Source of the DNA: Gordonia lacunae
GTDB taxonomy: Bacteria; Actinomycetota; Actinomycetes; Mycobacteriales; Mycobacteriaceae
Assembly (NCBI RefSeq): GCF_002149015.1
Contig: NZ_NGFO01000014.1
Coordinates: forward strand, 62,001 to 126,000
Length of the DNA: 64,000 bases
Direction of reading: 5' to 3'
Under the pieces are notes generated by a model, which was given only the letters and a program-made list of their open reading frames with translations, had not been told where the DNA came from and did not search any database. Both the position numbers and the translations under genes were made by a program. Shown in pieces: positions 9,638 to 25,695 of this stretch; the first letter of the stretch is position 1, and each line of letters begins with the position of its first letter.

Positions 9638-9678
9638 GAGTAGGCTGGCCCGGTGGCCAGAGGACGAGGGAGTGCACA

Positions 9679-10350: not shown

Positions 10351-10365
10351 ACGCCGCGCCGCGGA

Positions 10366-10970: not shown

Positions 10971-12380
10971 TCAGAGTCCGACGACCCGCGCGGTGTCGCG
11001 CCCGCCGGTGGCTTCGACGCCATCGTCGTCTTCGTGGTCGACGCCGTTGCGCATGGTGCGGATCAGTTCGTCGGTGAACGCGCGGATGGTGCGGTGGGCG
11101 GTCAGCGTGTCGGGGTGCCGTGCGCGCAGCGCCAGTCCGTCGCCGGTACGCGAGATCCAGAATTGCACATCGTCGGCGGTGGTCGCGTTCGAGATGTGGT
11201 GGGCGTCGATCGCCTGATGGCGGTCCGCGCCGGGGAGCAGCCGGTAGTCGACGTAGGACACCATGAAGATGTCCGCCCGGGTGCGGCGTAGTCCGCCCAT
11301 CGCCTCGATGACCTGCGGAACGGGTACCTCGCCGAGGGTCACGGCCCGGCGCAGCTCGGGTCCGGTGCGCCGGATCGTGTCGATCAGGTCACCGGTGCTC
11401 ACGACGCGCAGTGGCGCATTGGTGGTGAACCAGCCGACCGCGTTGCGCCACTTCTCTTCCCGACGTGTGTGCATCGGGAACAGCAGCGGTAGTTCGGGTC
11501 CGCCGCCGCAGCGGCGGACCGCGTCGGCCATCGCGGCCAGGGTCCCGCCGAACACGCTGGCACCGTTGCGTCGGCACAGCTCGTCGAACCTCTCCGTCGC
11601 GGCCGGCCCGAGCAGCGTGCGCACCTCCGTGGCCTGTGCCGCGACGGCGCCGGGTTCGACCCCGAGGTCCAGGGGAAAGGTGGGCAGGACGCCGTCCCGG
11701 TCGTCGAAGAAGCGGAGCCAGCCGCGCATTCGGGGATCGGACTGTGCGACCGGGGGTGCATGCGACTCGGCGGCGCAGAAGTCGACGAAGTTCCCGCTCA
11801 TGACGGTCTCCGACGAATCGAAAGACGTTCCGTGGCAACGGTATCCTTCGTACAGCCGATGCAGGTCGTCGATCACTATGGAGATCGAGTAGGCGTCCAC
11901 GTGGCAGTGGTCGAAGCCGCAGATGATCGTCGACGCGTCGGCGCGGTCGATCGCGGCGAAGAGGTAGGCGGGGTGGCCGAAGGGGTGACATGCACGATCG
12001 AGTGTGTCGCGGAGCCGGTCGCGCAGAACGGTGTCGGAGGATGTGTCGATCACGGTGTCTACGCGGAGCACGAGGTCGTCCGGCTCGTAGGAATGCCGCC
12101 GGATCCCCTCGGGACCCGCCGAGAACGACGACCGGAGGGTGCCGTGCCGGGCGACGAGAGCGTGGTAGGCCGACCCGAGCGCAGCGCGGTCCACCCGGCC
12201 GCGGACGGTGAACGCGGCGGCCAGCCAGGTGCTCGACTCACCGGCCGAGGCCAGGTGCACGGTCTGGTTGAACGACGGTGGGACATCGGAGATCTCGGAC
12301 CGGACGTTCGAGGTGTCCACGGACCAGGACAGCAACTCGCCCGCGGACGGGCAGTATCGATCGATGGTGGTGACGTGCAC
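10971..12380 (-). CDS. PapA-like acyltransferase (condensation-domain fold) 1
   Basis: A 469-residue member of the CoA-dependent acyltransferase superfamily. It has the N-terminal PapA pattern (PSAGELLSW, then VPPSFNQTVHL), the HxxxD catalytic motif as FDHCHVDAYS near residue 158, and the late segment VGWFTTNAPL. In mycobacteria PapA1/2/3 proteins move fatty acyl groups from CoA or a polyketide synthase onto trehalose. Here Ala replaces the Gly that usually follows the catalytic Asp. It is the last of three tandem paralogues on the minus strand, 6 bp behind the second. The acceptor is inferred to be a sugar made by neighbouring glycosyltransferases. Confidence 0.82.
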   Translation of the reverse strand: MHVTTIDRYCPSAGELLSWSVDTSNVRSEISDVPPSFNQTVHLASAGESSTWLAAAFTVRGRVDRAALGSAYHALVARHGTLRSSFSAGPEGIRRHSYEPDDLVLRVDTVIDTSSDTVLRDRLRDTLDRACHPFGHPAYLFAAIDRADASTIICGFDHCHVDAYSISIVIDDLHRLYEGYRCHGTSFDSSETVMSGNFVDFCAAESHAPPVAQSDPRMRGWLRFFDDRDGVLPTFPLDLGVEPGAVAAQATEVRTLLGPAATERFDELCRRNGASVFGGTLAAMADAVRRCGGGPELPLLFPMHTRREEKWRNAVGWFTTNAPLRVVSTGDLIDTIRRTGPELRRAVTLGEVPVPQVIEAMGGLRRTRADIFMVSYVDYRLLPGADRHQAIDAHHISNATTADDVQFWISRTGDGLALRARHPDTLTAHRTIRAFTDELIRTMRNGVDHEDDDGVEATGGRDTARVVGL

Positions 12381-12386
12381 TCGTCC

Positions 12387-13883
12387 TCACGCTCCTCTGC
12401 GTAGGGCCGCGGCCGCGACGGGGTCGGCGGGCCCAGGTGTCGCGGCCGGCCCACGGATCTGCCGGTCGCCGGTGCGCGCGATGTCCGCGACCACGGCGCG
12501 CAGATGGTCGTAGTAGTGGCGAGCCACGGACTCCGCGAACGGGGTGCCCGGGATCTGGCTGCCCAGGTAGAGCTCGTCGTGGTCGCGGTTGATCCACGCC
12601 GACGCGTTGGCCGTCCGGCCCTCCCCGGTGAACAGCGCGCCACGCCGGAAGGCCTCCCGTGACGTACCGGGGAACCATCGGAAATCGATGTAGGACAGCA
12701 GGTTCGGTGCGGTGATGATCGCGTCCGGGGTGGCGCCCGCGGCAGCGATGGCGGCGAGCGCGGCCGCCACCGGCACCGTCGCGAGGTCGCGCGCGCGCCG
12801 ACGGGCCGTGTGTGCCGCCGGGATCAGCTCGGCGAAGGTCGATGCTGTGGTCAGGGAGAACTCCACCGGTGCGAAGGTGCAGAACCATCCCTGTGACGTC
12901 GCGTACCCGTCGAGCGCGGCCCGGGTGTTGAACACCGTCATCCCGTAGTACTCGTCGGCGCCGGCCAGCTCTCGGTCGGTGATCGCGATGGCCGCGTAGA
13001 TGCCGTCGATGAAGCGACCTCCTGCCCCGCGGCACGCGGCGTCGAAGGCGGCGATCCCGGCGCCGTCGAGCAGTGAGACCTCGACACCGGTCACCTGTGC
13101 GGTGTCGCCCGCGGCCAGGCCGAGGTCGAGGGGGAACCGCGGCATCTGCAGGTCGTGCCTGCGGAAGATTTCCTGCCAGGCCCTGGTCTGGGGAGAGCCC
13201 GCCAGATGCTGGGCGGTCGACTCGGCCTCGGCCGCGGCGTAGGTGAAGTAGCCCCCGACGGCCGGAGCCGGCTCGGCGTCCGTCGCGTGATCGGGGTCGC
13301 CGGCTCCGATCAGTTCCAGGTAGATCTGCGCGATCTCGTCGAGGGCCAGAGCCTGTGACGCGCCGTCGGAGAGGGCGTGATCGCACGCCAGGAAGAGGGC
13401 GAACCCGCCGGGCCGGCTGATGGCTCCGAAGGCGAATCCGGGGAAGGCGTCGCTGGGGGTTTCGTGGTCGAAACGATCGATGAGGTACGGGTGCACGTCG
13501 TCGGCGGTCTCCAGCCGGCGGTCGACGCGCCCCTCGAAGTCGACGTCGGCGGAATCGACGAGGTGGGCGGTGACGTCCCCGTCTCGGCATTCGAACCAGG
13601 TGCGCAGCACCTCGTGACGGCGCACGAAGAGAGTCAGGGCAGCGCCGAGTGCCGCGGTGTCGAGGTCGCCGTCGATCTCGGTGCCCGATCCCAGGTATCC
13701 GCGATGGGTGCGCCCCGCGGCCCGGGCGACAGCTGCACCGCGGACGTGGTTCTGGGCCAGGAAGGTGACGGGCGCCGGGTGGTCGGGGGTGCTCGAGGCG
13801 GCCTCGCGACAGGCCTCGGTCGGGTCGAAGCGCACGGCCATCCCCGGTTGTGGACGCCAGTTGCCCATTGCCGTGATTCTCAT
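12387..13883 (-). CDS. PapA-like acyltransferase (condensation-domain fold) 2
   Basis: A 498-residue protein with the clearest PapA1-3 pattern of the three: GNWRPQPGMAVRFDPT at the N-terminus, catalytic ACDHALSDGAS (HxxxDG) near residue 175, RFPLDLGL, TSQGWFCTF and LSYIDFRWFPG towards the C-terminus. The ATG at 13881-13883 is preceded by GAGGAGAG at ideal spacing, which fixes the start well inside a longer open frame. Predicted role: transfer of a long-chain acyl group to a sugar hydroxyl, cytoplasmic or membrane-peripheral. It lies 16 bp behind the third paralogue. Confidence 0.86.
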   Translation of the reverse strand: MRITAMGNWRPQPGMAVRFDPTEACREAASSTPDHPAPVTFLAQNHVRGAAVARAAGRTHRGYLGSGTEIDGDLDTAALGAALTLFVRRHEVLRTWFECRDGDVTAHLVDSADVDFEGRVDRRLETADDVHPYLIDRFDHETPSDAFPGFAFGAISRPGGFALFLACDHALSDGASQALALDEIAQIYLELIGAGDPDHATDAEPAPAVGGYFTYAAAEAESTAQHLAGSPQTRAWQEIFRRHDLQMPRFPLDLGLAAGDTAQVTGVEVSLLDGAGIAAFDAACRGAGGRFIDGIYAAIAITDRELAGADEYYGMTVFNTRAALDGYATSQGWFCTFAPVEFSLTTASTFAELIPAAHTARRRARDLATVPVAAALAAIAAAGATPDAIITAPNLLSYIDFRWFPGTSREAFRRGALFTGEGRTANASAWINRDHDELYLGSQIPGTPFAESVARHYYDHLRAVVADIARTGDRQIRGPAATPGPADPVAAAALRRGA

Positions 13884-13899
13884 CGGGTTCTCTCCTCGA

Positions 13900-15357
13900 T
13901 CATGCGGGGCGGGCGTCGTCCATCGCGGCGGTGCCGGCGAAGGTCGCGCAGGTGTAGGAGGACAGGGGCAGGGCGGTGCCCTCGGTGGCGAGTGCCCCCA
14001 AGATGGACGCGTAGGTGGTGATGAGGTCGCGGATGCTCGCGTCGGCCGGATCGTGACCGGGGTGTCGCGTGGAGACGGTGATCCCTCCGGGCACCCGCGC
14101 GATCCAGAGGTAGACCTCGCGGTCCGATCGCGACCCGCCGCGCAGGATCTGTGCCCCGGCCGCATCCCACTCACCCGCTCCGGGGACGTGACGGATGTCC
14201 AGATACGACACGACGAACTCCGGTTCGCCTCCGGTGCCCAGCAATTCGACGACGCGCTGATAGGGGAACGACGGCAGGTGCCGAACCGCGTCGATCGCGG
14301 ACGCGGTCGCGGCCAGGGCGTCATCGAAGGTGTCCGCGCCGGCGAGGTCGACCTCGAGGGGGGCGAGCCCGACATACCAGCCCACCGATCCCGCGTACCG
14401 TGCCTCCGATCGGGTGTGCATCGGCATGGTCAGTCGTAGCGTGTCGCGGCCGGTGAGGGTGCGGAGGGCGACAGCGAGGGCCGCGAACACCGCTGTCTGG
14501 GTTCCGTGTCCGCCCGCTCGGGCCGCCGAGCTCACGAAGGTCGCCAGACTGTCGTCGGCCACGTACTCGGAGATGCCGCGCTGCCGCGGTGTGCGCGCCC
14601 GGTCCCGGGTCTCCAGGCGCGGGCGGACCAGAGGGAGACCGACCCCCGGGGCATCCGCGGAACCGTCCAGGAATGCGCGCCATCGCACGACCGCGGGGTG
14701 CTCGCCGGTCATGCCGAGGCCCACCGCGCGATCGTGCACGCTGAAGTCGAGATGACTTCCGACGTCTGCCATCTCGGTGGCGGTGCTCGTCCGGGCCGAG
14801 GTGTACAGGCGACGGATCTCGCTCATGCTCAACAGGATCGAATACGCATCCATGACCACGTGGTCGGCGGCGAAGGCGACGGTGACGCCGTGCGACGACT
14901 CGATGGTCGCCGCGAGGCAGTGTGGCCAGCGCGTCGGCGCGAGTCCGGCGTCGAAGACACCGATGAGGAGGTCGCGGACATCGTCGCCCGAGTCGAAGTC
15001 GCCCGCCACCTCGGCATCGACGCCGAGCTGGGCGCCGCGGTAGGTGCGACGCCCGTGATCGGGATCGGCGGTCGTCGGGTCGGATGTCGAGAGGAGCGCT
15101 TCGTGGCGCGTGAGCCACCGGCGCAGGCAGGTGTCGAAGTGCTCGGCATCCAGCTTGTCGTCGATCTCGAAAATCGCTCCGAGCCATGAGTGTTCGTCGG
15201 AATCGTCGATGGTCGATCGCCGAATCGACGCCGACTGGTCGTAGGTGAACGGTCGCGGATCCGGTTGCCAGCCCGAGGGATCCATACGTGTGGTCGGCGT
15301 CCAGATCGTGACCGTCCCGGCCGGTACGGGGTAGTCGGACAGCTCGGTGAACTTCAT
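13900..15357 (-). CDS. PapA-like acyltransferase (condensation-domain fold) 3
   Basis: A 485-residue protein that is first in the minus-strand operon. PVPAGTVTIWTPT at the N-terminus and the catalytic FAADHVVMDAYS (HxxxD followed by Ala, as in paralogue 1) place it in the PapA family. SVGWYVGLAPLEV and VVSYLDIRHVPGAGEWD are further family segments. The start ATG at 15355-15357 has no strong ribosome-binding site. The three paralogues are diverged from one another, so they probably act on different positions or with different acyl donors rather than being recent duplicates. Confidence 0.82.
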   Translation of the reverse strand: MKFTELSDYPVPAGTVTIWTPTTRMDPSGWQPDPRPFTYDQSASIRRSTIDDSDEHSWLGAIFEIDDKLDAEHFDTCLRRWLTRHEALLSTSDPTTADPDHGRRTYRGAQLGVDAEVAGDFDSGDDVRDLLIGVFDAGLAPTRWPHCLAATIESSHGVTVAFAADHVVMDAYSILLSMSEIRRLYTSARTSTATEMADVGSHLDFSVHDRAVGLGMTGEHPAVVRWRAFLDGSADAPGVGLPLVRPRLETRDRARTPRQRGISEYVADDSLATFVSSAARAGGHGTQTAVFAALAVALRTLTGRDTLRLTMPMHTRSEARYAGSVGWYVGLAPLEVDLAGADTFDDALAATASAIDAVRHLPSFPYQRVVELLGTGGEPEFVVSYLDIRHVPGAGEWDAAGAQILRGGSRSDREVYLWIARVPGGITVSTRHPGHDPADASIRDLITTYASILGALATEGTALPLSSYTCATFAGTAAMDDARPA

Positions 15358-15405
15358 GCGCGGTGGTCCATGCGTCGGTCATCCGTTCCCGGGCCGCGAC
15401 ACCAT

Positions 15406-15427
15406 GCCATGCCTTCCCCGGCATGGC
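15406..15427. promoter_or_regulatory. Perfect 8-bp inverted repeat in the divergent region
   Basis: GCCATGCC and GGCATGGC are separated by TTCCCC. It lies about 50-70 bp upstream of the first minus-strand acyltransferase. It may be an operator or an mRNA leader hairpin. No adjacent regulator gene belongs to the cluster. Confidence 0.45.
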
Positions 15428-15859
15428 CCCCCGGCCCATGAGTTCTGATCTGAGACAACAGGAATCGCCCGTACCACGATGCACGCGCGCGGCCCGGTAC
15501 GACGCACCGGGGGAGTTCCCCGGCCACGAACACGGCGTCGAGGCCGCCTGTGTCTGTAGCGAGCCTAAGTGCTTACGACGGGCACGTGCAGGGGCAGGGG
15601 CGCGTGACGTTCATCACCGAGTGGGGTGCACCGGCGCGGGCCGTCAGTCCGACGGAGCATGGAAGTCGGCTGTGTGGCTGAATGTTTCGCGATCCGCCCG
15701 GGGCTCGATGTGGTGGACATCCGAGTCCGGTTGCGTTCATGTAAAGAACTGATGACAAGCCGACGCCGCGGACGGGCCGCCGCCCACCGGATTGCGTAGT
15801 CAGACGGCATGTCGACGAAATCCGTTGCCGGGCAGCGTCGAATATCGCAATCGGTCACG

Positions 15860-15888
15860 TTGCGGCTGCCGGGACGCTCACCTACCGT
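15860..15888 (+). promoter_or_regulatory. Candidate sigma-70-type promoter of the exporter/glycosyltransferase operon
   Basis: TTGCGG (15860-15865), a 17-bp spacer, then TACCGT (15883-15888). The -10 element ends 34 bp before the ATG of the ABC ATPase, a suitable distance. It is a motif match only. Confidence 0.45.
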
Positions 15889-15922
15889 GGGGCCGAAGTC
15901 GACCACACGCATCGGGGGTGCC

Positions 15923-16924
15923 ATGTCCACGACCGTCCCGGCCATCGAGGCCCGCGGTCTGACCAAGGAATTCGGCGGCAGACGGGCCGTCGACGCGGTC
16001 GATCTCGTCGTTCCGGCCGGCGGCGTCTTCGCCCTCCTGGGGACCAATGGCGCGGGTAAGACCACCACCGTGCGCATGCTGGCGACGCTGCTGCGCCCGG
16101 ACTCCGGTGACGCCCGCATCTTCGGGCACGACGTCGTCGCGGAGGCCACCGCGGTCCGGTCGCTCATCGGGGTCACCGGCCAATATGCCTCCGTCGACGA
16201 GGATCTCACCGCTCGCGAGAACCTGATGATCTTCGGCCGGCTGATCGGCTCGTCGCGCCGCCGGGCACGCATCCGTGCCGACGAACTGCTCGACGAGTTC
16301 GGTCTCGGCGCGGTCGCGACCCGGCGCGTGGGTCACTTCTCCGGCGGCATGCGTCGACGACTCGACCTCGCGGCGTCGCTGATCACGCGTCCGCGTCTGC
16401 TGTTCCTCGACGAGCCGACCACGGGGCTCGACCCCCGCACGCGGGCACAGATGTGGCAGACGGTGCGCGACATGGTGACCAGTGGGTCGACCGTCCTGCT
16501 CACCACGCAGTATCTCGACGAGGCCGATGAACTCGCCGATCACATCGCGGTCATGGACCGGGGCTGCGTGGTCGCCGACGGGACGGCTGACGAACTGAAG
16601 GCCGGCGTCGGCGACATGAGTGTGCGACTCGAGCTCGCCGACGCCGACGAATTGGCGGCCGCCGCCGAGGTGTGTGCGCCGTTCACCTCGAGTGGCGAGC
16701 CGACGATCGCGCGCCGCGACGGGGTCCTCGTGCTGCCGATGGCCGACATCGACCCGCTCGCCGACATCCTCGGTGCTCTCCGCGCCCGCGGGCTCGCGCT
16801 CACGTCGGTCAACGTGGTGCGCCCCACCCTCGACGAGGTGTTCTTCGCGCTGACCGACGGAGGCGACCCCACCCGAACCGCATCGGCCACGGCGGAGATC
16901 GATTCGACAGGAGTGCGGGCATGA
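15923..16924 (+). CDS. DrrA-like ABC transporter ATP-binding protein
   Basis: A 333-residue nucleotide-binding subunit. It has Walker A GTNGAGKTTT (about residue 38), the Q-loop GVTGQYASVD, signature FSGGMRRR, Walker B LLFLDEPTTGLD and the H-loop region LLTTQYLDEAD. The C-terminal DrrA extension (about residues 225-310) is present, including VRPTLDEVFFALT. The DrrA family pairs with an ABC-2 permease to export glycolipids or hydrophobic drugs, for example DrrABC for PDIM. ATG 15923 is chosen over the upstream in-frame ATG because of the GGGGGTG ribosome-binding sequence and family length. The stop overlaps the permease ATG (ATGA). Confidence 0.92.
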   Translation: MSTTVPAIEARGLTKEFGGRRAVDAVDLVVPAGGVFALLGTNGAGKTTTVRMLATLLRPDSGDARIFGHDVVAEATAVRSLIGVTGQYASVDEDLTARENLMIFGRLIGSSRRRARIRADELLDEFGLGAVATRRVGHFSGGMRRRLDLAASLITRPRLLFLDEPTTGLDPRTRAQMWQTVRDMVTSGSTVLLTTQYLDEADELADHIAVMDRGCVVADGTADELKAGVGDMSVRLELADADELAAAAEVCAPFTSSGEPTIARRDGVLVLPMADIDPLADILGALRARGLALTSVNVVRPTLDEVFFALTDGGDPTRTASATAEIDSTGVRA

Positions 16925-17748
16925 GCACCGGAGCGCTGCAACCGAGTACACGCGCACCCCAGGCCGCGACCGAGGCCCGGGTCCGGATCCGGCCGACCGC
17001 CGCGGTGATGCAGTCCCTCACGATGACGCACCGGGGCCTGCTGAAGATCAAACACAATCCGCAGCAGCTGTTCGACGTCATCGTGCTGCCCATCGTGTTC
17101 ACGGTCATGTTCTCCTCGATCTTCGGCGGTGCGATCGCCGGGAACGTCGTGGGATATCTCCCGCTGCTGATCCCCGGGGTACTGGTCCAGGTGTGTGTCG
17201 CGGCGTCGGTGGTGACCGGCGTCCAGTTGCGCGAGGACCTCGACCGCGGGGTCTTCGACCGGTTCAAGTCGCTGCCGATCGCGCGCATCGCGCCACTGGC
17301 CGGTGCGCTGGTGGCCAACACCCTGCGCTACGTCGTGGCGTCGGCCATCACGGTGTGCGTCGGGGTGATCATGGGGTACCGGCCGGCGAGTCCCGTGGGG
17401 GTCGCGGTCGCGTGCGTCCTGATCGTGGTGGTGGCGTTCTCGTTGAGCTGGATCTTCGCGCTTCTCGGTGTGCTGCTCGACAAGGCGTCGACCGTCCAGG
17501 GCGTCTCGATGCTCGTGCTGATGCCGATCACCTTCGTCTCCAATGCGCTTGTCCCGATCGACACCATGCCCGGGTGGATGCAGGCCTGCGCGTCGGCGAA
17601 CCCGGTCTCCCATCTCGTGACGGCGGCACGTGGACTGGCCGCCGGCGAGAACGTGGGGACCGACATCGCCTACACGCTCCTGGGTGCGGCGGCGATCCTC
17701 GCCGTGGTGGTGCCGGTGACCCTGCGGACCTACATGCGGCGGACCTGA
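16921..17748 (+). CDS. DrrB-like ABC-2 type permease
   Basis: A 275-residue inner-membrane protein with an about 50-residue cytoplasmic N-terminus containing the NPQQLFDVIVLPIVFTVMF first helix, and six hydrophobic segments in total. LREDLDRGVFDRFKSLPI is the ABC-2 coupling-helix region and FVSNALVPIDTMPGWMQ the family signature late loop. The start overlaps the ATPase stop by 4 bp, so the two subunits are translationally coupled. With the adjacent glycosyl- and acyltransferases, export of a glycolipid is the best inference; self-resistance or drug efflux is the alternative. Confidence 0.9.
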   Translation: MSTGALQPSTRAPQAATEARVRIRPTAAVMQSLTMTHRGLLKIKHNPQQLFDVIVLPIVFTVMFSSIFGGAIAGNVVGYLPLLIPGVLVQVCVAASVVTGVQLREDLDRGVFDRFKSLPIARIAPLAGALVANTLRYVVASAITVCVGVIMGYRPASPVGVAVACVLIVVVAFSLSWIFALLGVLLDKASTVQGVSMLVLMPITFVSNALVPIDTMPGWMQACASANPVSHLVTAARGLAAGENVGTDIAYTLLGAAAILAVVVPVTLRTYMRRT

Positions 17749-17793
17749 GTGTCCGTGCCGATGACCGACCGATCAGCGCGAGGAGCAGACACC

Positions 17794-18672
17794 ATGAGCA
17801 CGCCGATCACCTTCTCGGTGGTGGTACCGGTCTACAACGAGGAGGACACGATCGGCGAGTGCCTCGCCCGGTTGTCGGCACAGTCCGACCGGATCACCGA
17901 AATCGTGGTGGTGGACAACAATTCGACCGACGGCAGCCGCGCGGTGATCGACGCCTGGCGTTCGGCCCACCCGCGGATCCGCGTGATCGACGAGGCCCGG
18001 CAGGGGCTGGTGTACGCGCGCAACGCCGGGCTCGACGCCGCGACGGGTGATCTCGTCGCCCGCATCGACGCCGACACCCGGGTGCCCCCGGACTGGGCGC
18101 GCACGATCGTGGAGTTCTTCGCGGCCGACGTGGGGGAGGACTGGGCGGCCCTGTGCGGGCGAGGGGAGGCCTATGACGTGCCCCTGGCCGGGAGGCTCGA
18201 CCGGTGGAAGACCCGCCTGCACCCGCTGAACGGGTTGCGGCGCGCGAAGCCCGTGACCGAGGTACCCGTGCTCTACGGCTCGAACATGGTGCTGCGGCGC
18301 ACGACCTGGGCGGCGATCCGGGACCGGGTCAGCATGCGCCGGAACATTTTCGAAGACGTGGACATGGGCCTCTGCGTGGGTGACGCGGGCGGGCGCAACG
18401 CCTTTCTCCGCTCGCTGACCGTCGGGGTCTCCCCGCGCCGGATGGAGACCGGCATGGTGCCGTTCGTCCGGTACATGAGTTTCCTCCCGCGAACCTTCCT
18501 GCTGCATCGGCGCTTCGGGCTGGCGGCCGGCGCGGCTGCGATCTATGTGCCCGCGATCTCGGTCACGCACGCGATGCGACTCGTCGTGCTGCGGTCCTAC
18601 GACTCCCGGACGGGTCGGATCGATCCGCGAAACCTGCTGCGGGGCGGTGGTTCCGATCGTGTCCTGCCGTGA
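17794..18672 (+). CDS. Family 2 (GT2) glycosyltransferase
   Basis: A 292-residue GT-A fold enzyme. It has SVVVPVYNEEDTIGECL at the N-terminus, VVVDNNSTDGS, the metal/nucleotide-binding DxD in ARIDADTRV, and FEDVDMGL, an ED-type catalytic base motif. A C-terminal hydrophobic stretch (LAAGAAAIYVPAISV) suggests membrane association. ATG 17794 is preferred over GTG 17749 because AGGAG lies 8 nt upstream. It follows the permease by 45 bp and is probably in the same operon. Sugar donor and acceptor are unknown; the enzyme works on the cytoplasmic face. Confidence 0.88.
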   Translation: MSTPITFSVVVPVYNEEDTIGECLARLSAQSDRITEIVVVDNNSTDGSRAVIDAWRSAHPRIRVIDEARQGLVYARNAGLDAATGDLVARIDADTRVPPDWARTIVEFFAADVGEDWAALCGRGEAYDVPLAGRLDRWKTRLHPLNGLRRAKPVTEVPVLYGSNMVLRRTTWAAIRDRVSMRRNIFEDVDMGLCVGDAGGRNAFLRSLTVGVSPRRMETGMVPFVRYMSFLPRTFLLHRRFGLAAGAAAIYVPAISVTHAMRLVVLRSYDSRTGRIDPRNLLRGGGSDRVLP

Positions 18673-18697
18673 CCGTCGGAGTCCGGCCGGCCCGGGA

Positions 18698-20041
18698 TCA
18701 GCCGGCGCGCCGACGCGTCGCCTGCGTCGCGACCGTCTCTTCGACGATGTCGGACGCCGACCGCACGGCCTCGGCGGGGGGGATGAGCCGGCGGCGGAGA
18801 TCGGCGGACCGCCGATGGGTGTCCGCGTCCAGGATTCGGTCGAAAGCCGCGGTCAGCGACTCCGCGGTCACCCGCGCCATCGGCAACGTGGCGCCCACCC
18901 GCGCGGTGCTCAGGGCCCGTCCCCAGATCGGCTGATCGGCGCCGACCCAGGTGACCAGGGTGGGCAGACCGGCGCGCAGGCCCGCCGCCACCGACCCGGC
19001 GCCGCCGTGGTGGACCGCGGCGCGGCACCGCGGCAGTACGGTGTCGTGATCGACGTGCCCGACCACACGTACGGCGTCCGCGGATGTCGATGCGCCCGAG
19101 TCGGATTCGCTCGACATGAAACCGCTCCAGCCGCCCGACACCAGCAACCTGATCCCGAGCCGCCGCGCCGCGGTACGGAACGCGTCGGCCAGAGCGTCGG
19201 GGTCGGCCGGCAACATGCTGCCGAAACCGACGTACACCGGGGCGTCGCCGGCGTCGAGCCAGTCGGCGAGGCTTCCCGGTCCCGGCTCGTCATCGAGTCC
19301 GGCATCACCCACCCCGGCTCGTTGCGGTGCGGCGAGAGTGAAGAATCCGACCAGCGGTCGACGCCGGCCCCACTGCGTGGTGAGACCCCCGAAGAGGGCC
19401 GGGTCGTAGGCCTGGATCTCGGGAACCCCGGTGCGGGAGATGAGTTCGGCGTAGGGGCGGGCCAGTGGCGACAATCCCAGGTCGGATCGCAGGGTGTTCT
19501 CGGCCGAGCGGGTCGCGAGCCAGAGGGCTCGCTCGGCGACGCGCCAGCTCAGGTCATTGACCGCCGCCGGCGCATCGACACCGAGGTGAGCGAGCAGCGA
19601 CACCGAGCTGTTGCGCCGAATGGGGCAGTAGTGCAGCGGGATGTGGGGGATCCCGAGAACGGCCGAGACGTTGTGGGCGCGTTCCTGACCGGCGCTGCTC
19701 GCGATGAGCGCGTCCGCCCCGTCGACGAGCTCGAGCAGGCGTTGCTGCATCGCGCGGCCGTCGCGCACCGACATCGCCGACACCGCGCGCAACCGGGTGC
19801 GCGGGTTCTTCGATCGCATGTCCTCGCGTACCAGATCGGAGCCAAGCAGGTCCCGCGTGCTCGCACCGTAGACCTCGGTGGGAATTCCGGCGCCGCTGCC
19901 GAATTCGACCAGATCGGGTGGCGTCGCGAGGGTCACCTCATGCCCCCGTCCCAGGAGTTCGGCGGCGAGGGCGACGGCCGGCTGGACGTCGCCGCGGCTG
20001 CCGTTGACCGCGATCACGAACCTCAACGTCGAACCCCTCAC
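18698..20041 (-). CDS. GT1 (UGT-fold) glycosyltransferase A
   Basis: A 447-residue GT-B enzyme. N-terminal VNGSRGDVQPAVALAAEL is the acceptor-domain opening of the rhamnosyl/UGT group found in mycobacterial glycopeptidolipid and phenolic glycolipid loci. C-terminal donor-site motifs are VYVGFGSM, AVHHGGAGSVAAGLRAGLP and GADQPIWG. The start codon is a GTG at 20039-20041; a TTG 12 nt inside is an alternative. It is the only glycosyltransferase in the cluster on the minus strand: it converges on the GT2 gene and diverges from GT1-B. Confidence 0.88.
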   Translation of the reverse strand: MRGSTLRFVIAVNGSRGDVQPAVALAAELLGRGHEVTLATPPDLVEFGSGAGIPTEVYGASTRDLLGSDLVREDMRSKNPRTRLRAVSAMSVRDGRAMQQRLLELVDGADALIASSAGQERAHNVSAVLGIPHIPLHYCPIRRNSSVSLLAHLGVDAPAAVNDLSWRVAERALWLATRSAENTLRSDLGLSPLARPYAELISRTGVPEIQAYDPALFGGLTTQWGRRRPLVGFFTLAAPQRAGVGDAGLDDEPGPGSLADWLDAGDAPVYVGFGSMLPADPDALADAFRTAARRLGIRLLVSGGWSGFMSSESDSGASTSADAVRVVGHVDHDTVLPRCRAAVHHGGAGSVAAGLRAGLPTLVTWVGADQPIWGRALSTARVGATLPMARVTAESLTAAFDRILDADTHRRSADLRRRLIPPAEAVRSASDIVEETVATQATRRRAG

Positions 20042-20130
20042 GTGTCGGTGTGGTCGGATGGGCGACCGATTCTAAACACGGCCCGCCACCGCGGCGCGCG
20101 GCCCGAGACGTGGATCACCGGAGCGGTGTC

Positions 20131-21516
20131 ATGAGGGTCTCGTTCGTCATCAACGGAACACGCGGGGACGTCCAGCCGGCAACGGTACTGGCGAGGGAGC
20201 TCGCGCGGCGCGGCCACGACGTGCGTCTCGGGGTCCCGCCCAACATGGTCCCGTCTGCCCGGGCCTGGGCGGACGGTGTCGTGCGGCTGGCGGTCGTGCC
20301 GCTCGGCCAGGACACCCGTGCCCACCTCGAGACGGTGGCACAGGTCCGAGCGCAGGCGGGACGTCACCCGCTCCGACGTCTGCGGGTCCTGCTCTCGCTG
20401 CGGAACGCCGGATGGGATGACCTCGTCGCCGACATGGCCGTGGTCGTCGACGGCGCCGACGTCATCGTGAGCGGCTTGATCACCGAACAGCCCGCACTCG
20501 CCTTCGCCGAATCCGCCGGAGTCCCCCTGGTGTCGATCCATCACGCTCCCGTACGCCGCAACCGCCGGGTCGGCCCGGTGCCCGGCCGGTTTCCGGGTGG
20601 CCCCCGCGCCGTCCGGGCGCAATGGGTCGCCTACGACGCCGCGTTCGGCCTGCTCACCAGGCGACGAGAGCGTCGCCTGCGCGCCGGACTGGGGTCGACC
20701 GGGGCGTCAGGGCCCTACGCCGCTCGGCTGCGGGCGGCGGCGGGTCTGGAGTTGCAGGCCTACGACCCGTTGTTCGGTGCGCCTCACGCTCGGTCCGGAC
20801 CGCACGATCGGCTGTGGAGCGACGACACGGCCGCTCGTCCCCGACCGACGGTGGGGTTCCTCGGGTGGCCCGAGGAGCACCCGGTTGCCGGCTCCGACGC
20901 ACTCGCGTCCTGGCTCGACGCCGGCGACGCCCCCATCTACGTGGGTTTCGGCAGCATGCCGTTGCGGGGCGGGGAGAGCACCCTGCGCGTCGTCACGGAA
21001 CTCGGCCGCCGGCTCGGCCGTCGTGTGCTGGTGTGTGCCGGCTGGACCGAACTGAGCGAGGAGGTGCGCAGCGGCGTCGAGTCCGACGCGGTGCGGGTCG
21101 AGACCCAGGTCGACCACCGCACGGTCGTCGGCCGGTGCGCGGTCGTGGTCCACCACGGCGGCGCCGGGACCACCGCGGCCGTGCTGCGCGCCGGCCGGCC
21201 ATCGGTGATCTGCTGGTATGGCGCGGATCAGCCGTTCTGGGGAGCCGAACTCGAACGGCTGGGTGTCGGCGTGTCGATGCCGATGGCCCGTGCGGGACGC
21301 GACCTGGACGTGGATCGGCTGTGCAAGGCGGTCGCGGCGATGCTCGACCCCGCGGTCGCCGATCGGGCCGCGCGACTGCCGACGGTCTTGGTGAGCGAGG
21401 ACGTGGCGCTGGCGGATGCCGCGCACGCGGTCGAGAGTTCGGTGACAAGCTCGTGCACGAGGGAACCGTGTTCGCGGGGACCGCAGATGCACAGCGGAAC
21501 GAAGGTGGACGTATGA
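20131..21516 (+). CDS. GT1 (UGT-fold) glycosyltransferase B
   Basis: A 461-residue GT-B enzyme with INGTRGDVQPATVLARELARR at the N-terminus, YVGFGSMP, VVHHGGAGTTAAVLRAGRP and GADQPFWG in the donor domain. ATG 20131 is taken as start, because residues upstream of it in the open frame do not match the family and lie in the divergent promoter. The stop overlaps the following acyltransferase ATG (ATGA), so the sugar transfer and acylation genes are translationally coupled. The donor may be dTDP-rhamnose or a related deoxysugar, by analogy with mycobacterial homologues only. Confidence 0.88.
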   Translation: MRVSFVINGTRGDVQPATVLARELARRGHDVRLGVPPNMVPSARAWADGVVRLAVVPLGQDTRAHLETVAQVRAQAGRHPLRRLRVLLSLRNAGWDDLVADMAVVVDGADVIVSGLITEQPALAFAESAGVPLVSIHHAPVRRNRRVGPVPGRFPGGPRAVRAQWVAYDAAFGLLTRRRERRLRAGLGSTGASGPYAARLRAAAGLELQAYDPLFGAPHARSGPHDRLWSDDTAARPRPTVGFLGWPEEHPVAGSDALASWLDAGDAPIYVGFGSMPLRGGESTLRVVTELGRRLGRRVLVCAGWTELSEEVRSGVESDAVRVETQVDHRTVVGRCAVVVHHGGAGTTAAVLRAGRPSVICWYGADQPFWGAELERLGVGVSMPMARAGRDLDVDRLCKAVAAMLDPAVADRAARLPTVLVSEDVALADAAHAVESSVTSSCTREPCSRGPQMHSGTKVDV

Positions 21517-22991
21517 CGACGATGCAGTCGCACGCGGCGGGACGACCCGAGGACGAGCGGGCGGCCGGGGGAGAGCGGGGCCTGCGTGGTCTCGCGGCAC
21601 GCGTACGCGCCGAGGGGTCGGCGATCCGGGGCGACCGGCTCACCTCCGAAGACGCCCCGTTCTGGTTCGTCACGCCGGCACTCGGCTGGTCGGTCGTGCT
21701 CCAGCTCGTGTGGGTGTTCGACGACGAGGTCTCGATCGAGGCACTCACCGCGATGAACGCGGCACTGGCGCGCGGGCGGTTGAACCGCATGCTCGTCGTG
21801 CCGGATGTCGTCGGGGCGCGTCCGCGCTGGGTCGAGGCGCCCGACGCACCCGGACTGGCAGCCGACAGCCGACCGGTGTCGGAGGCGGAGATCGACGAGT
21901 GGGCGACCGCGGAGATGTCCGGTGTTCCTCTCGATGCCGAGGGCGGGCGGTGCTGGCGGTTGCGGTCGGTCCCGACCGCCGCCGGCGGCACCGTGGTCTC
22001 GCTGTGCGCCCTGCACGTGGTCACCGACGGTCGGGGCATGCTCGCGGCCGCAACCGAGGCCGCCATGGCCTCGGCGGTACCGCTCGACCCCGGGGCCGGT
22101 CCCGCAACCGCGGCGGCCCGCGAGGCGCCCCACCCGCCGGTCTCGTGGCGTCGCCGGCGGATCGGCGATGTCGTGGACGCCGGGTCGCAGGCCGTGGCGG
22201 TCGTCACCGGACTCGCCCGGGCGGCACTCGAACAGCGCAAGGCCGGCGGGCCCGAACCCGACCCGCGCCCGGCTCGCACCCCGATCGCCGAACGTTCGCC
22301 CGCCGCCGAGTTCACGTGGGCCACCGCGACCGTGCCGGCAGCGGACTTCGACCGGGTCGCCGCCGAACACGACGGCACCGCCAACACTTTGTTCATCGCC
22401 GTGGTCAGCGGCCTGCTCCGCTCGAGTGGCCATGCGCCGCTGCCGAATCCGATCAAGGTCGGAGTTCCGGTCGACCGTCGCGAGAGCGAGGCGGACACCA
22501 GATCCAATCCGATCGCGGGCGTATCGGTGTATCTCACCGACGAGCCGGTCGCCGGCGGCGACCTCGGCGGCATCCGGTCCGCGTGCAAGGCGGCTTTCGT
22601 CCGCCTGTCCGAGGGCCGACGGGCCCCGCACATCCATCTGCGACCGCTGGCGTGGTTCCTGCCGCCGGCCGTGATCGTCAAGATCGTCAGCGCCGGCAAC
22701 GGGATCCCCGACGCGGTGATCTCCAACCTCGGTGACGTGCGACCCGCGGCGACGGTGCTGGGGGGTAGGCCGGCGCGCAAGATCGCCTTCCGCGGAATGG
22801 CGCAGGGCGTCGACGCCTCGGCGGGACAGCGGTTCGGCGACGGGGTCCAATCGTGGCTCGTCCGCACGCGGGACCAGGTCACGTTCACCGTGCTCGGCTG
22901 CGACGAGACGAGTTTCTCCTCCGACGCCGTCGTCGCGGACCTGCTCGACCGAGAACTGACGGCGTGGGGGCTGCCCCACGAGATCTGGTGA
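21513..22991 (+). CDS. CoA-dependent acyltransferase-fold protein (WS/DGAT or CAT-like), copy 1
   Basis: A 492-residue protein. SLCALHVVTDGRGML carries the HxxxDG acyltransfer motif near residue 170. VGVPVDRRESEADTRSNPIAG and PDAVISNLGDVRP are C-terminal-subdomain segments like those of the condensation/WS-DGAT superfamily. It is clearly different from the three PapA-like proteins. A Pro/Arg-rich linker (about residues 245-270) joins the two halves. No membrane helix is evident. It is coupled to GT1-B by a 4-bp overlap. The likely role is acylation of the sugar or glycolipid made by the neighbouring transferases; the donor is unknown. Confidence 0.75.
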   Translation: MTTMQSHAAGRPEDERAAGGERGLRGLAARVRAEGSAIRGDRLTSEDAPFWFVTPALGWSVVLQLVWVFDDEVSIEALTAMNAALARGRLNRMLVVPDVVGARPRWVEAPDAPGLAADSRPVSEAEIDEWATAEMSGVPLDAEGGRCWRLRSVPTAAGGTVVSLCALHVVTDGRGMLAAATEAAMASAVPLDPGAGPATAAAREAPHPPVSWRRRRIGDVVDAGSQAVAVVTGLARAALEQRKAGGPEPDPRPARTPIAERSPAAEFTWATATVPAADFDRVAAEHDGTANTLFIAVVSGLLRSSGHAPLPNPIKVGVPVDRRESEADTRSNPIAGVSVYLTDEPVAGGDLGGIRSACKAAFVRLSEGRRAPHIHLRPLAWFLPPAVIVKIVSAGNGIPDAVISNLGDVRPAATVLGGRPARKIAFRGMAQGVDASAGQRFGDGVQSWLVRTRDQVTFTVLGCDETSFSSDAVVADLLDRELTAWGLPHEIW

Positions 22992-23023
22992 CCCATCGAA
23001 CCCGTTGATGCTGAGGAGAACAC

Positions 23024-24400
23024 GTGACCGTGACGGCGACCGACAGCCCACCCGCCCAGGTGCTCCGTGTGACCGGCCCCGATGAGTCCTACCTGCTCGT
23101 CGCGGAGCTGTTCGGGATGGGTGCCCCCATCCAGATCACGTGGGTCTTCGACGACGACCCGGGGGATGAGGCGATCGACTCGCTGCGGACCGGACTCGCG
23201 GCCGGACCGCTGCACCGTGCCGTGTCCCGCCGTCGGGTCCCGTTCGCCCGCCACCGTTGGGTTCGGTCGCCGCGAACGGTGCACGCCGGGCGGGTACAGG
23301 TCATCGATGCCGACGGCGTCGGCGAATGGGCCGATGCGGTGCTCCGCGCGAGTCGTCTCGATCCCGTGCGTGGGTCCGGCTGGCAGCTCGACTCGGCGCG
23401 GATCGCCGGCGGTGGCCGTGCGGTGTCATTGCTCGCCTCCCACATGATCACCGACGGCCACGGACTGTATCGACTGGTGGCCGACGCGGCAGCGGGCCGG
23501 ACCGCGAGCCTCCCCGCGCCCGGCAGCGGACGCTCGTGGGGGGCCGTACGCGCCGATGCGGCCGACGCGGCCGCGTCGGTACGGGCGGCCGCGCGATCCG
23601 TGCGGATCCTGGTCCGCGAGGCGCTCACGGCGCGGGCCGCCGGCACCGGCGACTCCCGAACAGCTGTGCGTTCGTCGCGTGCGACGCCCCCGAGGGCGGC
23701 CGGGTCCGTGTCCGACCCGGACACGACGCTGGCGACGGTCGACGTCTCGGCAAGCGAGTGGGCCGCTCGTGCCGCCGAGCACGGCGGCACCCAGAACTCG
23801 CTGTTCACCGCGCTCCTCGCCGGGATCGTGCACCGTTCGGGTCGTCCGCTCGACGGTCCGATGAAGGTGTGCATCGCGGTCAGCACGAGAGACGGCGACG
23901 ACGACCACCGCGCCAACGCATCGGGCGGGGTGTGGATTCGGATCGCCGATCCCGTCGAACCGGGCGCCGACCTCACCACCATCCGGTCGTCGAGCAAGCG
24001 TGCCTTCGTCGACTACGCCGAGTCCGGTGGCGATCAGACCGCCGACAACCTCCAGCCGATCGTCCGGATGCTCCCGAAACGACTCATCGGGCGGCTGATG
24101 CGCGGCATCCCCGGACCCGACACGACCGTGTCGAACCTCGGCTCGACGCCGGAGTCGGCGTTGCGCATCGGCGACCGCACCGCGTCCCGGTTCGCCATCC
24201 GCGCGGTCATGCAGGGGATGCCCGCGGAGGAGCGGCGGGTACGCGGTCCGGCGATCGCTGCCTGGGCGGTCACCTACGGCGACACGATCACGCTCACGTT
24301 CTTCGGCATCGACCCCGACGACTTCGGCGACCCCGGGCGGTTGCGCACACTGATCGCCGACGAACTGACCGCCTGGCGGATCGGACACCGGTTCTGGTGA
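23024..24400 (+). CDS. CoA-dependent acyltransferase-fold protein (WS/DGAT or CAT-like), copy 2
   Basis: A 458-residue paralogue of the preceding gene. LLASHMITDGHGLY contains the HxxxDG motif near residue 140. IQITWVFDDDPGDEAID near the N-terminus parallels VLQLVWVFDDE in copy 1, and DELTAWRIGHRFW parallels the C-terminal RELTAWGLPHEIW. GTG 23024 follows a GGAGAA ribosome-binding sequence. The gap to copy 1 is 32 bp, and the stop overlaps the GTG of GT1-C (GTGA). Sequence divergence between copies indicates separate roles. Confidence 0.75.
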   Translation: MTVTATDSPPAQVLRVTGPDESYLLVAELFGMGAPIQITWVFDDDPGDEAIDSLRTGLAAGPLHRAVSRRRVPFARHRWVRSPRTVHAGRVQVIDADGVGEWADAVLRASRLDPVRGSGWQLDSARIAGGGRAVSLLASHMITDGHGLYRLVADAAAGRTASLPAPGSGRSWGAVRADAADAAASVRAAARSVRILVREALTARAAGTGDSRTAVRSSRATPPRAAGSVSDPDTTLATVDVSASEWAARAAEHGGTQNSLFTALLAGIVHRSGRPLDGPMKVCIAVSTRDGDDDHRANASGGVWIRIADPVEPGADLTTIRSSSKRAFVDYAESGGDQTADNLQPIVRMLPKRLIGRLMRGIPGPDTTVSNLGSTPESALRIGDRTASRFAIRAVMQGMPAEERRVRGPAIAAWAVTYGDTITLTFFGIDPDDFGDPGRLRTLIADELTAWRIGHRFW

Positions 24401-25695
24401 CGGCGCACCACATCTCGATCGTCCTGTACGGCAGTCGGGGCGACATCCAGCCGGGTGTCTGTCTGGCTCTCGAACTGCAGGCGCGCGGCCATCGCGTCAG
24501 CGTCCTCGCCCCGCCGAACCTCTCGGGCCTCGCGCGGGCCGTCGGGGTGCGGGAGGTCCACGAGATCGGCCTCGACTCCGATGCGGCGTGGTCGTCGGAC
24601 GGCGCGCGGTCGGCGCGCGGCAGTCGTAACCCGTTGGCGCGGATCGCATTCGCCCTCCGCACCGTCCGAGGCGGCTTCGACGCGCTCGACGCCGACCTCG
24701 AGCGTCTCTTCGTCCCGGAGTCGGCGCCGCTGCACGACACCGGCCTCCTCGTCGCCGCACCGCTGTGCCAAGACCGCATCGTCGCCCTGGCCGAGCGTCT
24801 GGGCGTCCCGCTGACCGTGCTGCGGTACGGTCCGATGTCGGAGAACGGACTCATCGGCGCCGTGCCCGGACTCACCGAGCGATGGTCACCGGCAGCCAAG
24901 CGCCGATCCTGGCGCGTCGCCGACCGGCTGACCTGGGTCGCGACCGGGTGGAACGAGAATCGCTTCCGGCGCCGGATCGGACTCGCCCCGAGTCGCGGGC
25001 CGCTGCCGCGGCGCCTGGTCGCCGACGGGATCCCGCAGATCCAGGCCTACGACGCGGAGATGGTGCCGGGTCTCGCCGCGGAGTGGGACGACCGCAAACC
25101 CCTCGTCGGCTTCTTCGACCTCCCGGCCGCGAGCCGACCGGGCATCGCCGAGATCGGCGCGGACACCACCGAACTCGCCGGCTGGTTGGACGCAGGCGAG
25201 CCGCCGCTGTTCCTCACCTTCGGCAGCATGCCCATCCTCGACACGCCGACGCTGATCACACGCTGGCGGTCCGCCGCGCGTGCCCACGGGGTGCGCTGCC
25301 TCATCGCGATGGGAGACGCGACCGGAATCGACCCCGACGACCCGGATGTCTTCCACACCGCAGGCGTGGACCACGCGTCGGTGCTGCCGCGGTGTGTCGC
25401 GACGGTCCATCACGGCGGCGCCGGGACCACTGCGGCCGGCCTACGGGCCGGACTCCCGAGCCTTGTCTGTGCGGTCACCGCCGATCAGCCCTTCTGGGGC
25501 GAGCGGGTCCGGGCGCTCGGGGTGGGGGAGGCCCTCCGGCTGTCGACGTTCACCGACGAGGATGCACTCGCCGGCCTGAAAACGGTGCTCGCCGACGAGA
25601 CCCGTTCGGCGGCCGCCGCATTCGCGCGCCGGATGACATCCCCGGACAAGGCCGTCGCCGCGGCGGCAGACATCTGCGAAGCCCGGCTGAGATAG
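24397..25695 (+). CDS. GT1 (UGT-fold) glycosyltransferase C
   Basis: A 432-residue GT-B enzyme. YGSRGDIQPGVCLALELQAR opens the acceptor domain; LTFGSMPI, TVHHGGAGTTAAGLRAGLP and TADQPFWG form the donor site. The acceptor-side half (about residues 60-190) differs from GT1-A and GT1-B, so a different acceptor is likely. The GTG start at 24397 overlaps the stop of the acyltransferase by 4 bp. It is the last gene of the cluster, followed by a terminator and then kgd on the other strand. Confidence 0.88.
   Translation: MTAHHISIVLYGSRGDIQPGVCLALELQARGHRVSVLAPPNLSGLARAVGVREVHEIGLDSDAAWSSDGARSARGSRNPLARIAFALRTVRGGFDALDADLERLFVPESAPLHDTGLLVAAPLCQDRIVALAERLGVPLTVLRYGPMSENGLIGAVPGLTERWSPAAKRRSWRVADRLTWVATGWNENRFRRRIGLAPSRGPLPRRLVADGIPQIQAYDAEMVPGLAAEWDDRKPLVGFFDLPAASRPGIAEIGADTTELAGWLDAGEPPLFLTFGSMPILDTPTLITRWRSAARAHGVRCLIAMGDATGIDPDDPDVFHTAGVDHASVLPRCVATVHHGGAGTTAAGLRAGLPSLVCAVTADQPFWGERVRALGVGEALRLSTFTDEDALAGLKTVLADETRSAAAAFARRMTSPDKAVAAAADICEARLR

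What the first reader, a model, noticed from the sequence alone, without database searches (positions are those of the whole stretch)
10971..25695. Compact sugar-acylation and export cluster: five acyltransferase-fold proteins, four glycosyltransferases and a DrrAB-type exporter
Seen directly: three PapA-like proteins, two more HxxxDG acyltransferase-fold proteins, one GT2, three GT1 enzymes and an ABC ATPase-permease pair in 14.7 kb, with no unrelated gene between. Known: PapA proteins esterify trehalose or related glycolipids in mycobacteria, GT1 enzymes of this type decorate glycopeptidolipids and phenolic glycolipids, and DrrAB-type pairs export lipids. Inference: the locus builds and exports a polyacylated oligosaccharide or glycolipid with up to four sugars and five acyl groups. 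No PKS, FadD, MmpL or sulfotransferase is present, which differs from the known sulfolipid, DAT/PAT, LOS and PDIM loci.
Basis: partly seen in the sequence, partly recalled or inferred. Interest (0 to 1): 0.78.

Follow-up and report, generated by a model that had tools for sequence, protein, structure and literature searches.

The report
Gene cluster for acylated sugar-chain lipids
An eleven-gene cluster in a Gordonia bacterium very probably builds and exports a surfactant made of a short sugar chain decorated with fatty acids, and comparison with relatives suggests that the number of sugar-adding genes sets the length of the chain in compounds whose genes have remained unassigned.

Summary
Observation confirmed: 11 intact genes in 14.7 kb, namely three PapA-type and two WS/DGAT-like HxxxD acyltransferases, three GT1 and one GT2 glycosyltransferases, and DrrA-DrrB. 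The organism is a Gordonia. The set is a real unit: in 26 of 80 scanned loci (Gordonia, Williamsia, Millisia, Nocardia, Rhodococcus) a close GT2 relative lies with papA and GT1 genes; the other 54 show none. A sixth acyltransferase (pap4) lies elsewhere in the genome, between sseA and accA3, where several relatives keep the whole cluster. In one rhodococcal genus (37 genomes) 24 carry a short form with one GT1, 7 a long form with two GT1 plus the GT2, 6 neither. Reported chemistry of that group: Rhodococcus fascians, a trehalose-based trisaccharide lipid; Nocardia corynebacteroides, a pentasaccharide lipid. One GT fits trehalose+1, three fit trehalose+3. Best reading: a PKS-free pathway for trehalose-primed, multiply acylated oligosaccharide surfactants, up to a hexasaccharide here. 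No chemistry was tested; producers are matched only at species or clade level; Tsukamurella's tetrasaccharide and the eight esters of the pentasaccharide do not fit cleanly; DrrAB is absent from 7 of the 26 loci.

The parts
10971..12380 (-). pap1: PapA1-3-type sugar O-acyltransferase (HCHVDA at residue 158)
   Evidence: Pfam Condensation 2.1e-14; family profile best PDB match PapA2 6aef E 2.8e-59; orthologs in long and short clusters
12387..13883 (-). pap2: PapA-type acyltransferase (HALSDG)
   Evidence: Condensation 4.5e-13; PapA2 E 3.2e-31; own clade, support 1.0
13900..15357 (-). pap3: PapA-type acyltransferase (HVVMDA)
   Evidence: Condensation 9.2e-17; PapA2 E 1.5e-15
15358..15922 (.). 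intergenic region between the divergent pap and drr-gt2 units, probable promoter region (inferred)
   Evidence: 565 bp between the gene models; no Pfam match for the antisense ORF 15565-16272
15923..16924 (+). drrA: ABC-transporter ATPase
   Evidence: TIGR01188 drrA 343 bits over cut-off 312.45; Walker A and signature motifs
16921..17748 (+). drrB: ABC-2 permease, 4-bp overlap with drrA
   Evidence: PF01061 2.7e-26
17794..18672 (+). gt2: GT-A-fold family-2 glycosyltransferase (DAD motif, FEDVDMGLC conserved)
   Evidence: PF00535 1.6e-33; 11-row alignment A1, 62-95% identity to the window protein
18698..20041 (-). gt1a: GT1 glycosyltransferase, the only GT type seen in the short clusters
   Evidence: EryCIII-like_C 4.8e-17; PDB GtfB 1.2e-24; gt1a clade support 0.97
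20131..21516 (+). gt1b: GT1 glycosyltransferase, clade shared with Nocardia and Rhodococcus long clusters
   Evidence: Pfam; gt1b clade support 0.99
21513..22991 (+). at4: WS/DGAT-like HxxxDG acyltransferase, 4-bp overlap with gt1b
   Evidence: TIGR02946 E 1.6e-6, far below its cut-off; invariant HxxxDG in A2
23024..24400 (+). at5: WS/DGAT-like HxxxDG acyltransferase
   Evidence: AlphaFold pLDDT 88, C-domain/PapA/WSD fold
24397..25695 (+). gt1c: GT1 glycosyltransferase, among the 38 loci of the tree found only in Gordonia/Williamsia clusters, 4-bp overlap with at5
   Evidence: EryCIII-like_C 4.4e-15; gt1c clade support 1.0
25757..29641 (-). right boundary: kgd-type 2-oxoglutarate decarboxylase/dehydrogenase, not part of the cluster
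   Evidence: Pfam; also next to at4 in five Gordonia genomes whose fetched stretch lacks the rest of the cluster
10366..10845 (-). left boundary: DUF4383 protein, not part of the cluster
   Evidence: PF14325 1.3e-48

Best explanation
The cluster makes and exports a trehalose-primed, multiply acylated oligosaccharide lipid of the succinoyl/oligosaccharide-lipid biosurfactant class. Inferred route: cytosolic trehalose is esterified by the PapA enzymes with short and medium acyl groups taken as CoA thioesters (no dedicated PKS; beta-oxidation or FAS products); GT1a adds the first extra sugar, and GT2, GT1b and GT1c extend or branch the chain; the WS/DGAT-like at4 and at5, and pap4 encoded at the accA3 locus, complete the acylation; DrrAB moves the product across the membrane. 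The number of GT genes sets the number of sugars beyond trehalose, so this strain should make up to a hexasaccharide. Shown: gene identities, intact catalytic motifs, one modelled fold, co-conservation, GT-number polymorphism among relatives. Inferred: trehalose as acceptor, donors, order of steps, linkages, export.
For: The three PapAs have PapA2, a trehalose-2-sulfate acyltransferase, as best PDB relative. GT2 relatives of 57% identity or more co-occur with papA and GT1 in 26 of 26 loci; 0 of the 54 other kept loci do. In the 37 genomes of the corynebacterioides genus: 24 short clusters with one GT1 between two ATs (one split over contigs) and no close GT2 there; 7 long with two GT1 plus GT2; 6 neither. 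All 9 short loci read, and L077, L081-L084 and L220 of the long form, lie in the birA-accD5/maf/sseA-pap4-accA3 neighbourhood. Known products: R. fascians succinic trisaccharide, N. corynebacteroides succinic pentasaccharide (review Table 3); GT number + 2 = 3 and 5. R. corynebacterioides NBRC 14404 carries the 3-GT form. Rhodococcus I2R, near R. yunnanensis/R. fascians by 16S, makes succinic di- and trisaccharide esters and has four clustered papA genes whose spacing (stop-to-stop 1448, 1407, 2995) nearly equals short clusters L209 (1446, 1399, 2975) and L212 (1448, 1404, 2964). The third sugar of the trisaccharide lipid is a beta-glucose, as expected of an inverting GT1 (general knowledge).
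Against: No product, mutant or expression data. The pentasaccharide is an octaester but only six acyltransferases are linked. The Tsukamurella tetrasaccharide lipid is not explained: 6 of 8 fetched Tsukamurella loci have one GT1 match, 2 of 8 none (only matches to the window's GTs were sought, and only L223 was read by Pfam for further GTs). DrrAB is absent from 7 of 26 close loci. The insertion point of long and short forms differs by maf, and six other loci checked (three Nocardia, three Gordonia) show none of those flanking genes. Cluster content varies within Gordonia: pap1, gt1b or gt1c is missing in some. Three of the 14 GT1 rows of long clusters contain one in-frame TGA. The GT rule rests on two species- or clade-level data points plus I2R. 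No nucleotide-sugar or trehalose gene is in the cluster. pap3 and pap4 are only weakly separated in the tree (0.68 and 0.52).
Confidence: 0.7

Rival explanations
1. The cluster decorates an acceptor other than trehalose (a lipid, sterol-like, polyketide or peptide aglycone) with acylated sugars; the GT1s act like GtfB or sterol glucosyltransferases and DrrAB exports the glycoside.
For: gt1a's best solved relatives are glycopeptide GtfB and sterol 3-beta-glucosyltransferases; an NRPS-size open frame (5031 aa) lies on contig C5.
Against: No aglycone gene among the 11; PapA2 is the best PDB match of the three PapAs; related clusters occur in groups that make trehalose oligosaccharide lipids.
Confidence: 0.13
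2. It is a lipooligosaccharide-like cell-envelope locus whose PKS, FadD and MmpL partners lie elsewhere in the genome.
For: Same enzyme kinds (PapA, several GTs) and probably the same trehalose primer; 21 MMPL-domain matches exist elsewhere in the genome.
Against: Among 13 ketosynthase matches only two lie in large frames (1790 aa on C1, probably Pks13; 3258 aa on C7, FAS-size), so no dedicated Pks5-like enzyme is apparent; DrrAB rather than MmpL is linked.
Confidence: 0.08
3. A drug-inactivation or resistance locus: GT1s resemble rifamycin-inactivating Rgt and DrrAB resembles daunorubicin exporters.
For: Rgt is the best NCBIfam hit of the GT1s (about 96-104 bits) and DrrA passes its model.
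Against: Rgt scores are far below its 800-bit cut-off; five conserved acyltransferases have no role in this.
Confidence: 0.03

Closest known systems
Trehalose-based oligosaccharide lipids (R. fascians trisaccharide tetraester, N. corynebacteroides SM1 pentasaccharide octaester, Tsukamurella tri/tetrasaccharide esters; review PMC4365757, passages seen)
   Same: Predicted chemistry: trehalose core, extra sugars, several short/medium acyl esters; relatives of the cluster occur in the same species or clade
   Different: Compounds known without an assigned cluster in what I could search; the window carries one more GT than the 3-GT form of R. corynebacterioides, which predicts a longer chain
TlsA of Rhodococcus sp. 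SD-74 (succinoyl trehalose lipid) as cited in PMC8396431 (passages seen)
   Same: PapA-like acyltransferase for trehalose lipids; the four clustered papA genes of strain I2R share about 30% similarity with it according to that paper
Mycobacterial PapA1/PapA2 sulfolipid and LOS/DAT loci
   Same: PapA acyltransferases on a trehalose core (PapA2 is best PDB match)
   Different: No linked PKS or MmpL here, no FadD or sulfotransferase among the 11 genes; DrrAB instead of MmpL; WS/DGAT-like at4/at5 added (make-up of the mycobacterial loci recalled)
Fungal mannosylerythritol/cellobiose lipid clusters
   Same: Works alike: GT + acyltransferases + exporter without PKS (recalled; MEL papers seen only in the listing)
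   Different: Unrelated organisms and core sugar; analogy only

Membership tests
PapA-type acyltransferases (pap1-3) | HxxxD active-site motif in a C-domain-family protein | tested here: met
   Condensation matches; HxxxD in 125 of 125 labelled tree rows
PapA-type acyltransferases (pap1-3) | Closest to the trehalose-acylating PapA1-3 branch | tested here: met
   PapA2 6aef best PDB hit for all three; PDB only, no tree with mycobacterial PapAs
WS/DGAT-like acyltransferases (at4, at5) | Family model over its curated cut-off | tested here: not met
   TIGR02946 27 bits vs 310 for at4, none for at5; no credible Pfam match
WS/DGAT-like acyltransferases (at4, at5) | C-domain fold with HxxxDG | tested here: met
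   (the fold was modelled for at5 only)
DrrAB exporter | DrrA model over cut-off plus ABC-2 permease partner | tested here: met
Oligosaccharide-lipid biosurfactant pathway | Cluster present in a reported producer species | tested here: met
   R. corynebacterioides NBRC 14404; the producer strain SM1 itself was not available, and that N. corynebacteroides is this species is recalled
Oligosaccharide-lipid biosurfactant pathway | GT number equals sugars beyond trehalose | tested here: inconclusive
   Fits 2 species/clade-level cases and I2R; Tsukamurella tetrasaccharide does not fit
Oligosaccharide-lipid biosurfactant pathway | Makes the acylated oligosaccharide | not testable with these tools
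   needs chemistry
Mycobacterial LOS/SL/DAT-PAT loci | Linked PKS and MmpL | tested here: not met
   no MMPL or ketosynthase match on contig C6
Mycobacterial LOS/SL/DAT-PAT loci | Linked FadD and, for SL, a sulfotransferase | tested here: not met
   none among the 11 genes; not searched genome-wide

The most novel reading that the evidence does not exclude
Actinobacteria of this family carry a modular, PKS-free glycolipid locus in which gain and loss of individual glycosyltransferase genes sets the chain length of an acylated trehalose oligosaccharide (one GT, trisaccharide; three, pentasaccharide), with short and long forms replacing each other in one chromosomal neighbourhood between accD5 and accA3; the Gordonia version, moved next to kgd and with four GTs, makes an undescribed hexasaccharide lipid, a candidate surfactant also for the foam-former Gordonia amarae, which has the same four GTs (though the review lists its surfactant as high-molecular-weight, undetermined).
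Probability: 0.33. Interest if true: 0.78.

Novelty: new variant of a known kind. Interest (0 to 1): 0.62.

Why it matters
[quoted passage not shown] A conserved cluster with a countable set of GTs gives a direct, falsifiable gene-to-structure prediction and would make chain length and acylation accessible to engineering in surfactant producers. It also offers a candidate locus for surfactant made by Gordonia amarae, whose surfactant the 2015 review lists as not determined.

Tried and rejected
A Pfam run on the wrong frame made pap3 look family-less; corrected. The ORF 18545-20134(+) listed by the ORF listing is antisense to gt1a and was dropped. The first genome-contig scan with at5 alone found no relative; the GT2 alignment worked (best 80 of 85 kept). 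Tsukamurella GT2 hits (L088-L091) show no cluster around them and were set aside; Tsukamurella's own papA locus is related but, in L223, uses PapA5-type proteins. A functional link to kgd was considered and rejected: kgd flanks at4 even where the rest of the cluster is absent. Lone AT matches in five long-cluster rhodococci (L229-L233) lie in no cluster. The acyl-group count (six acyltransferases; six acyl transfers for the trisaccharide lipid by my reading of its structure; eight esters for the pentasaccharide) is noted but not used as evidence for. The first-pass gene labels assign each place to its best-scoring window query; paralogs were resolved by trees on 38 chosen loci, keeping only matches over 250 aligned residues and 70 bits and frames of at least 300 aa. 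A3 used 28 of 37 candidate pap1 rows plus the window; A2 used 28 of 36 at5 and 8 of 33 at4 candidate rows plus both window proteins.
Full report
What is there. Eleven complete genes fill 10971-25695. They form four units: pap3-pap2-pap1 (minus), drrA-drrB-gt2 (plus), gt1a (minus, convergent with gt2), and gt1b-at4-at5-gt1c (plus). drrA/drrB, gt1b/at4 and at5/gt1c overlap by 4 bp, which suggests translational coupling.

Enzyme identities. The three PapAs are Condensation-family proteins whose best solved relative is the trehalose-2-sulfate acyltransferase PapA2: E 2.8e-59 for the pap1 family profile, 3.2e-31 for pap2 and 1.5e-15 for pap3. at4 and at5 fall outside curated families. A profile of both reaches WSD and a PapA5-named chain weakly, and the at5 model (pLDDT 88) has the C-domain/PapA/WS-DGAT fold (TMq 0.61, rmsd 8.0; the PDB title of the top hit names a different protein, AzeD, than the molecule name). 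HxxxD is kept in 125 of 125 labelled PapA tree rows, and H, D and G are invariant in 38 of 38 at4/at5 rows. gt1a resembles GtfB and sterol glucosyltransferases; all three GT1s carry HHGGAG. The GT2 has DAD and an invariant FEDVDMGLC block. DrrA passes TIGR01188.

It is a conserved unit. Among 61 genomes (37 of the genus), 25, all of the genus, have an at5-family match. I fetched 20-kb stretches at 20 places. Eight genomes including the window's carry the cluster: the window's own, G031, G012 and G017 next to kgd, and G026, G034, G033 and G021 with no kgd in the stretch (pap1 was not found in G034 and G021, gt1b not in G026, G017 and G033, gt1c not in G033). Three (G029, G035, G001) have a rearranged form with gt2, gt1c, at5, papAs and drrAB. 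Five others (G019, G022, G014, G018, G002) keep only at4 between tetR (with or without a DUF4383 match) and kgd (G019 also gt1b; G002's at4 is broken), which reads as loss of the cluster there. Of the remaining five stretches, G006 and G009 hold papAs, drrAB, one AT and one gt1a-type GT1, G025 and G007 papAs with AT matches, and G012:C45 a lone at4-like gene. A scan with the GT2 alignment gave 85 relatives, of which 80 loci were kept: in the 26 with GT2 identity of 57% or more the GT2 lies with two to seven papA and one to three GT1 genes (matches over 150 bits); none of the other 54, some of them on short contigs, shows a papA, GT1 or AT match. GT totals in the 26: four in 3, three in 14, two in 6, and three in the 3 Williamsia loci L085-L087 that hold two papA triads; drrA and drrB are missing in 7 of 26 (L073 at a contig end, L077, L081-L084, L086). 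In a 397-genome sample of the order (85 genera) 5 genomes have a GT2 match better than 1e-120. In 201 family genomes 30, by my count of the listed rows at or above 285 bits, have a close at5, while the wider AT family reaches 97 of 201, so at-like genes as such are common.

A short relative, and one neighbourhood. I read neighbourhoods of 9 of the 24 short and, as G regions, 3 of the 7 long. All 9 short ones hold pap3-pap2-pap1 and pap4 beside it, and all 9 lie between accD5-maf and sseA. The long ones L077, L081-L084 and L220 lie between accD5 and maf-sseA, so the insertion point differs by maf; L218 and L219 end before sseA. Williamsia CHRR-6, G. soli and Tsukamurella L221-L222 use the short-type site. 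Three Nocardia (L074, L075, L078) and three Gordonia loci (L044, L046, L063) show none of these flanking genes. The window's genome keeps pap4 alone between sseA and accA3, at C6 about 26 kb, outside the window, and has its main cluster near kgd.

Trees (FastTree, midpoint-rooted): pap1 and pap2 form clades of support 1.0 that hold both long- and short-cluster members; pap3 plus pap4 is 1.0, but the split between them is weak (0.68 and 0.52). gt1a is 0.97, gt1b 0.99, gt1c 1.0; the short clusters have only gt1a. Long-cluster at4 and at5 separate from the short-cluster ATs. So the long form reads as the short papA-gt1a core plus gt2, gt1b and, in Gordonia/Williamsia, gt1c, with its own pair of ATs.

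Link to known compounds. The 2015 review PMC4365757 (passages read) describes oligosaccharide lipids as having a glycosylated trehalose backbone and lists a pentasaccharide succinic octaester (C2-C8) from Nocardia corynebacteroides SM1, a trisaccharide succinic tetraester from Rhodococcus fascians NBRC 12155 and Rhodococcus sp., and tri/tetrasaccharide esters from Tsukamurella tyrosinosolvens. PMC8396431 (passages read) reports succinic di- and trisaccharide esters from Rhodococcus sp. I2R, close to R. yunnanensis/R. fascians by 16S, with three papA3 and one papA1 genes clustered on contig 9; the authors describe glycosyltransferases and acyltransferases as spread over several contigs. Their coordinates give stop-to-stop distances 1448, 1407 and 2995; short clusters L209 and L212 give 1446, 1399, 2975 and 1448, 1404, 2964, while others differ more (L211: 1504, 1351). 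I infer that I2R has the short cluster. One GT1 then fits trehalose + 1 and three GTs fit trehalose + 3. That N. corynebacteroides is today's Rhodococcoides corynebacterioides, and that R. fascians belongs to this genus, is recalled taxonomy; strains SM1 and NBRC 12155 were not tested.

Misfits. Tsukamurella makes tetrasaccharide as well as trisaccharide lipid, but 6 of 8 fetched loci hold one GT1 match and 2 of 8 none (16 genomes searched; GTs unlike the window's would be missed outside L223). Eight esters exceed six acyltransferases. DrrAB is missing from 7 of 26 loci. Three of 14 long-cluster GT1 rows contain one TGA. The review lists the G. amarae surfactant as extracellular, of high molecular weight and not determined, which does not favour a small glycolipid.

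Not a known mycobacterial locus. No MMPL or ketosynthase match lies on C6; the genome's large ketosynthase frames are 1790 aa (probably Pks13, recalled) and 3258 aa (FAS-size). So LOS, sulfolipid and DAT/PAT membership fails on linked PKS and MmpL, although the logic (acylated, glycosylated trehalose) is shared.

Literature limits. Ten searches of the open-licence PMC library listed no paper that, from its title, abstract start or the passages I read, assigns such a GT-papA-AT cluster to a product; most subscription papers are not held, including the tlsA paper. MIBiG could not be searched.

Verdict. Observation confirmed, interpretation refined: a conserved PKS-free oligosaccharide-lipid cluster, confidence 0.7; a hexasaccharide product specifically is less certain (about one in three; I lowered the novel case from 0.35 to 0.33 on re-checking because of the high-molecular-weight entry for G. 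amarae and the differing insertion points).

Noticed in passing
L009 (G000:C5:92000-111900), 9721-18106: A second, shorter cluster in the same genome: three papA genes, an esterase (PF00756), an at-like gene and one gt1a-clade GT1; by the GT rule a trisaccharide-lipid locus.
   Followed up: partly
L011 (G000:C6:18000-36000), 7820-9415: A lone pap4 ortholog between sseA and accA3 in the window's genome, in the neighbourhood where several relatives hold the whole cluster.
   Followed up: yes
L052-L056 (Gordonia G019, G022, G014, G018, G002): at4 alone (with gt1b in G019; broken in G002) remains between tetR and kgd, apparent remnants of a lost cluster.
   Followed up: partly
L085-L087 (Williamsia): Two papA triads side by side, one of the short type and one of the long type, as if two glycolipid clusters were fused or duplicated.
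   Followed up: no
L223-L228 (Tsukamurella): A different cluster near sseA-pap4-accA3; in L223 PapA5-type acyltransferases, one GT1 and one WS/DGAT-like gene were read. L221 and L222 show no GT1 match.
   Followed up: partly
G143:C74:74716-81661, not fetched: Five at-like matches in tandem in one genome of genus g23, unexplained.
   Followed up: no
L092 (R. corynebacterioides NBRC 14404), 8535-11781: Three GT2-like stretches in a row and a shorter one on the other strand, distinct from the cluster's gt2.
   Followed up: no
window 29753-34543 (-): A 1596-aa frame with two ABC-exporter halves (ABC_membrane twice, ABC_tran twice), close to the cluster but beyond kgd.
   Followed up: no
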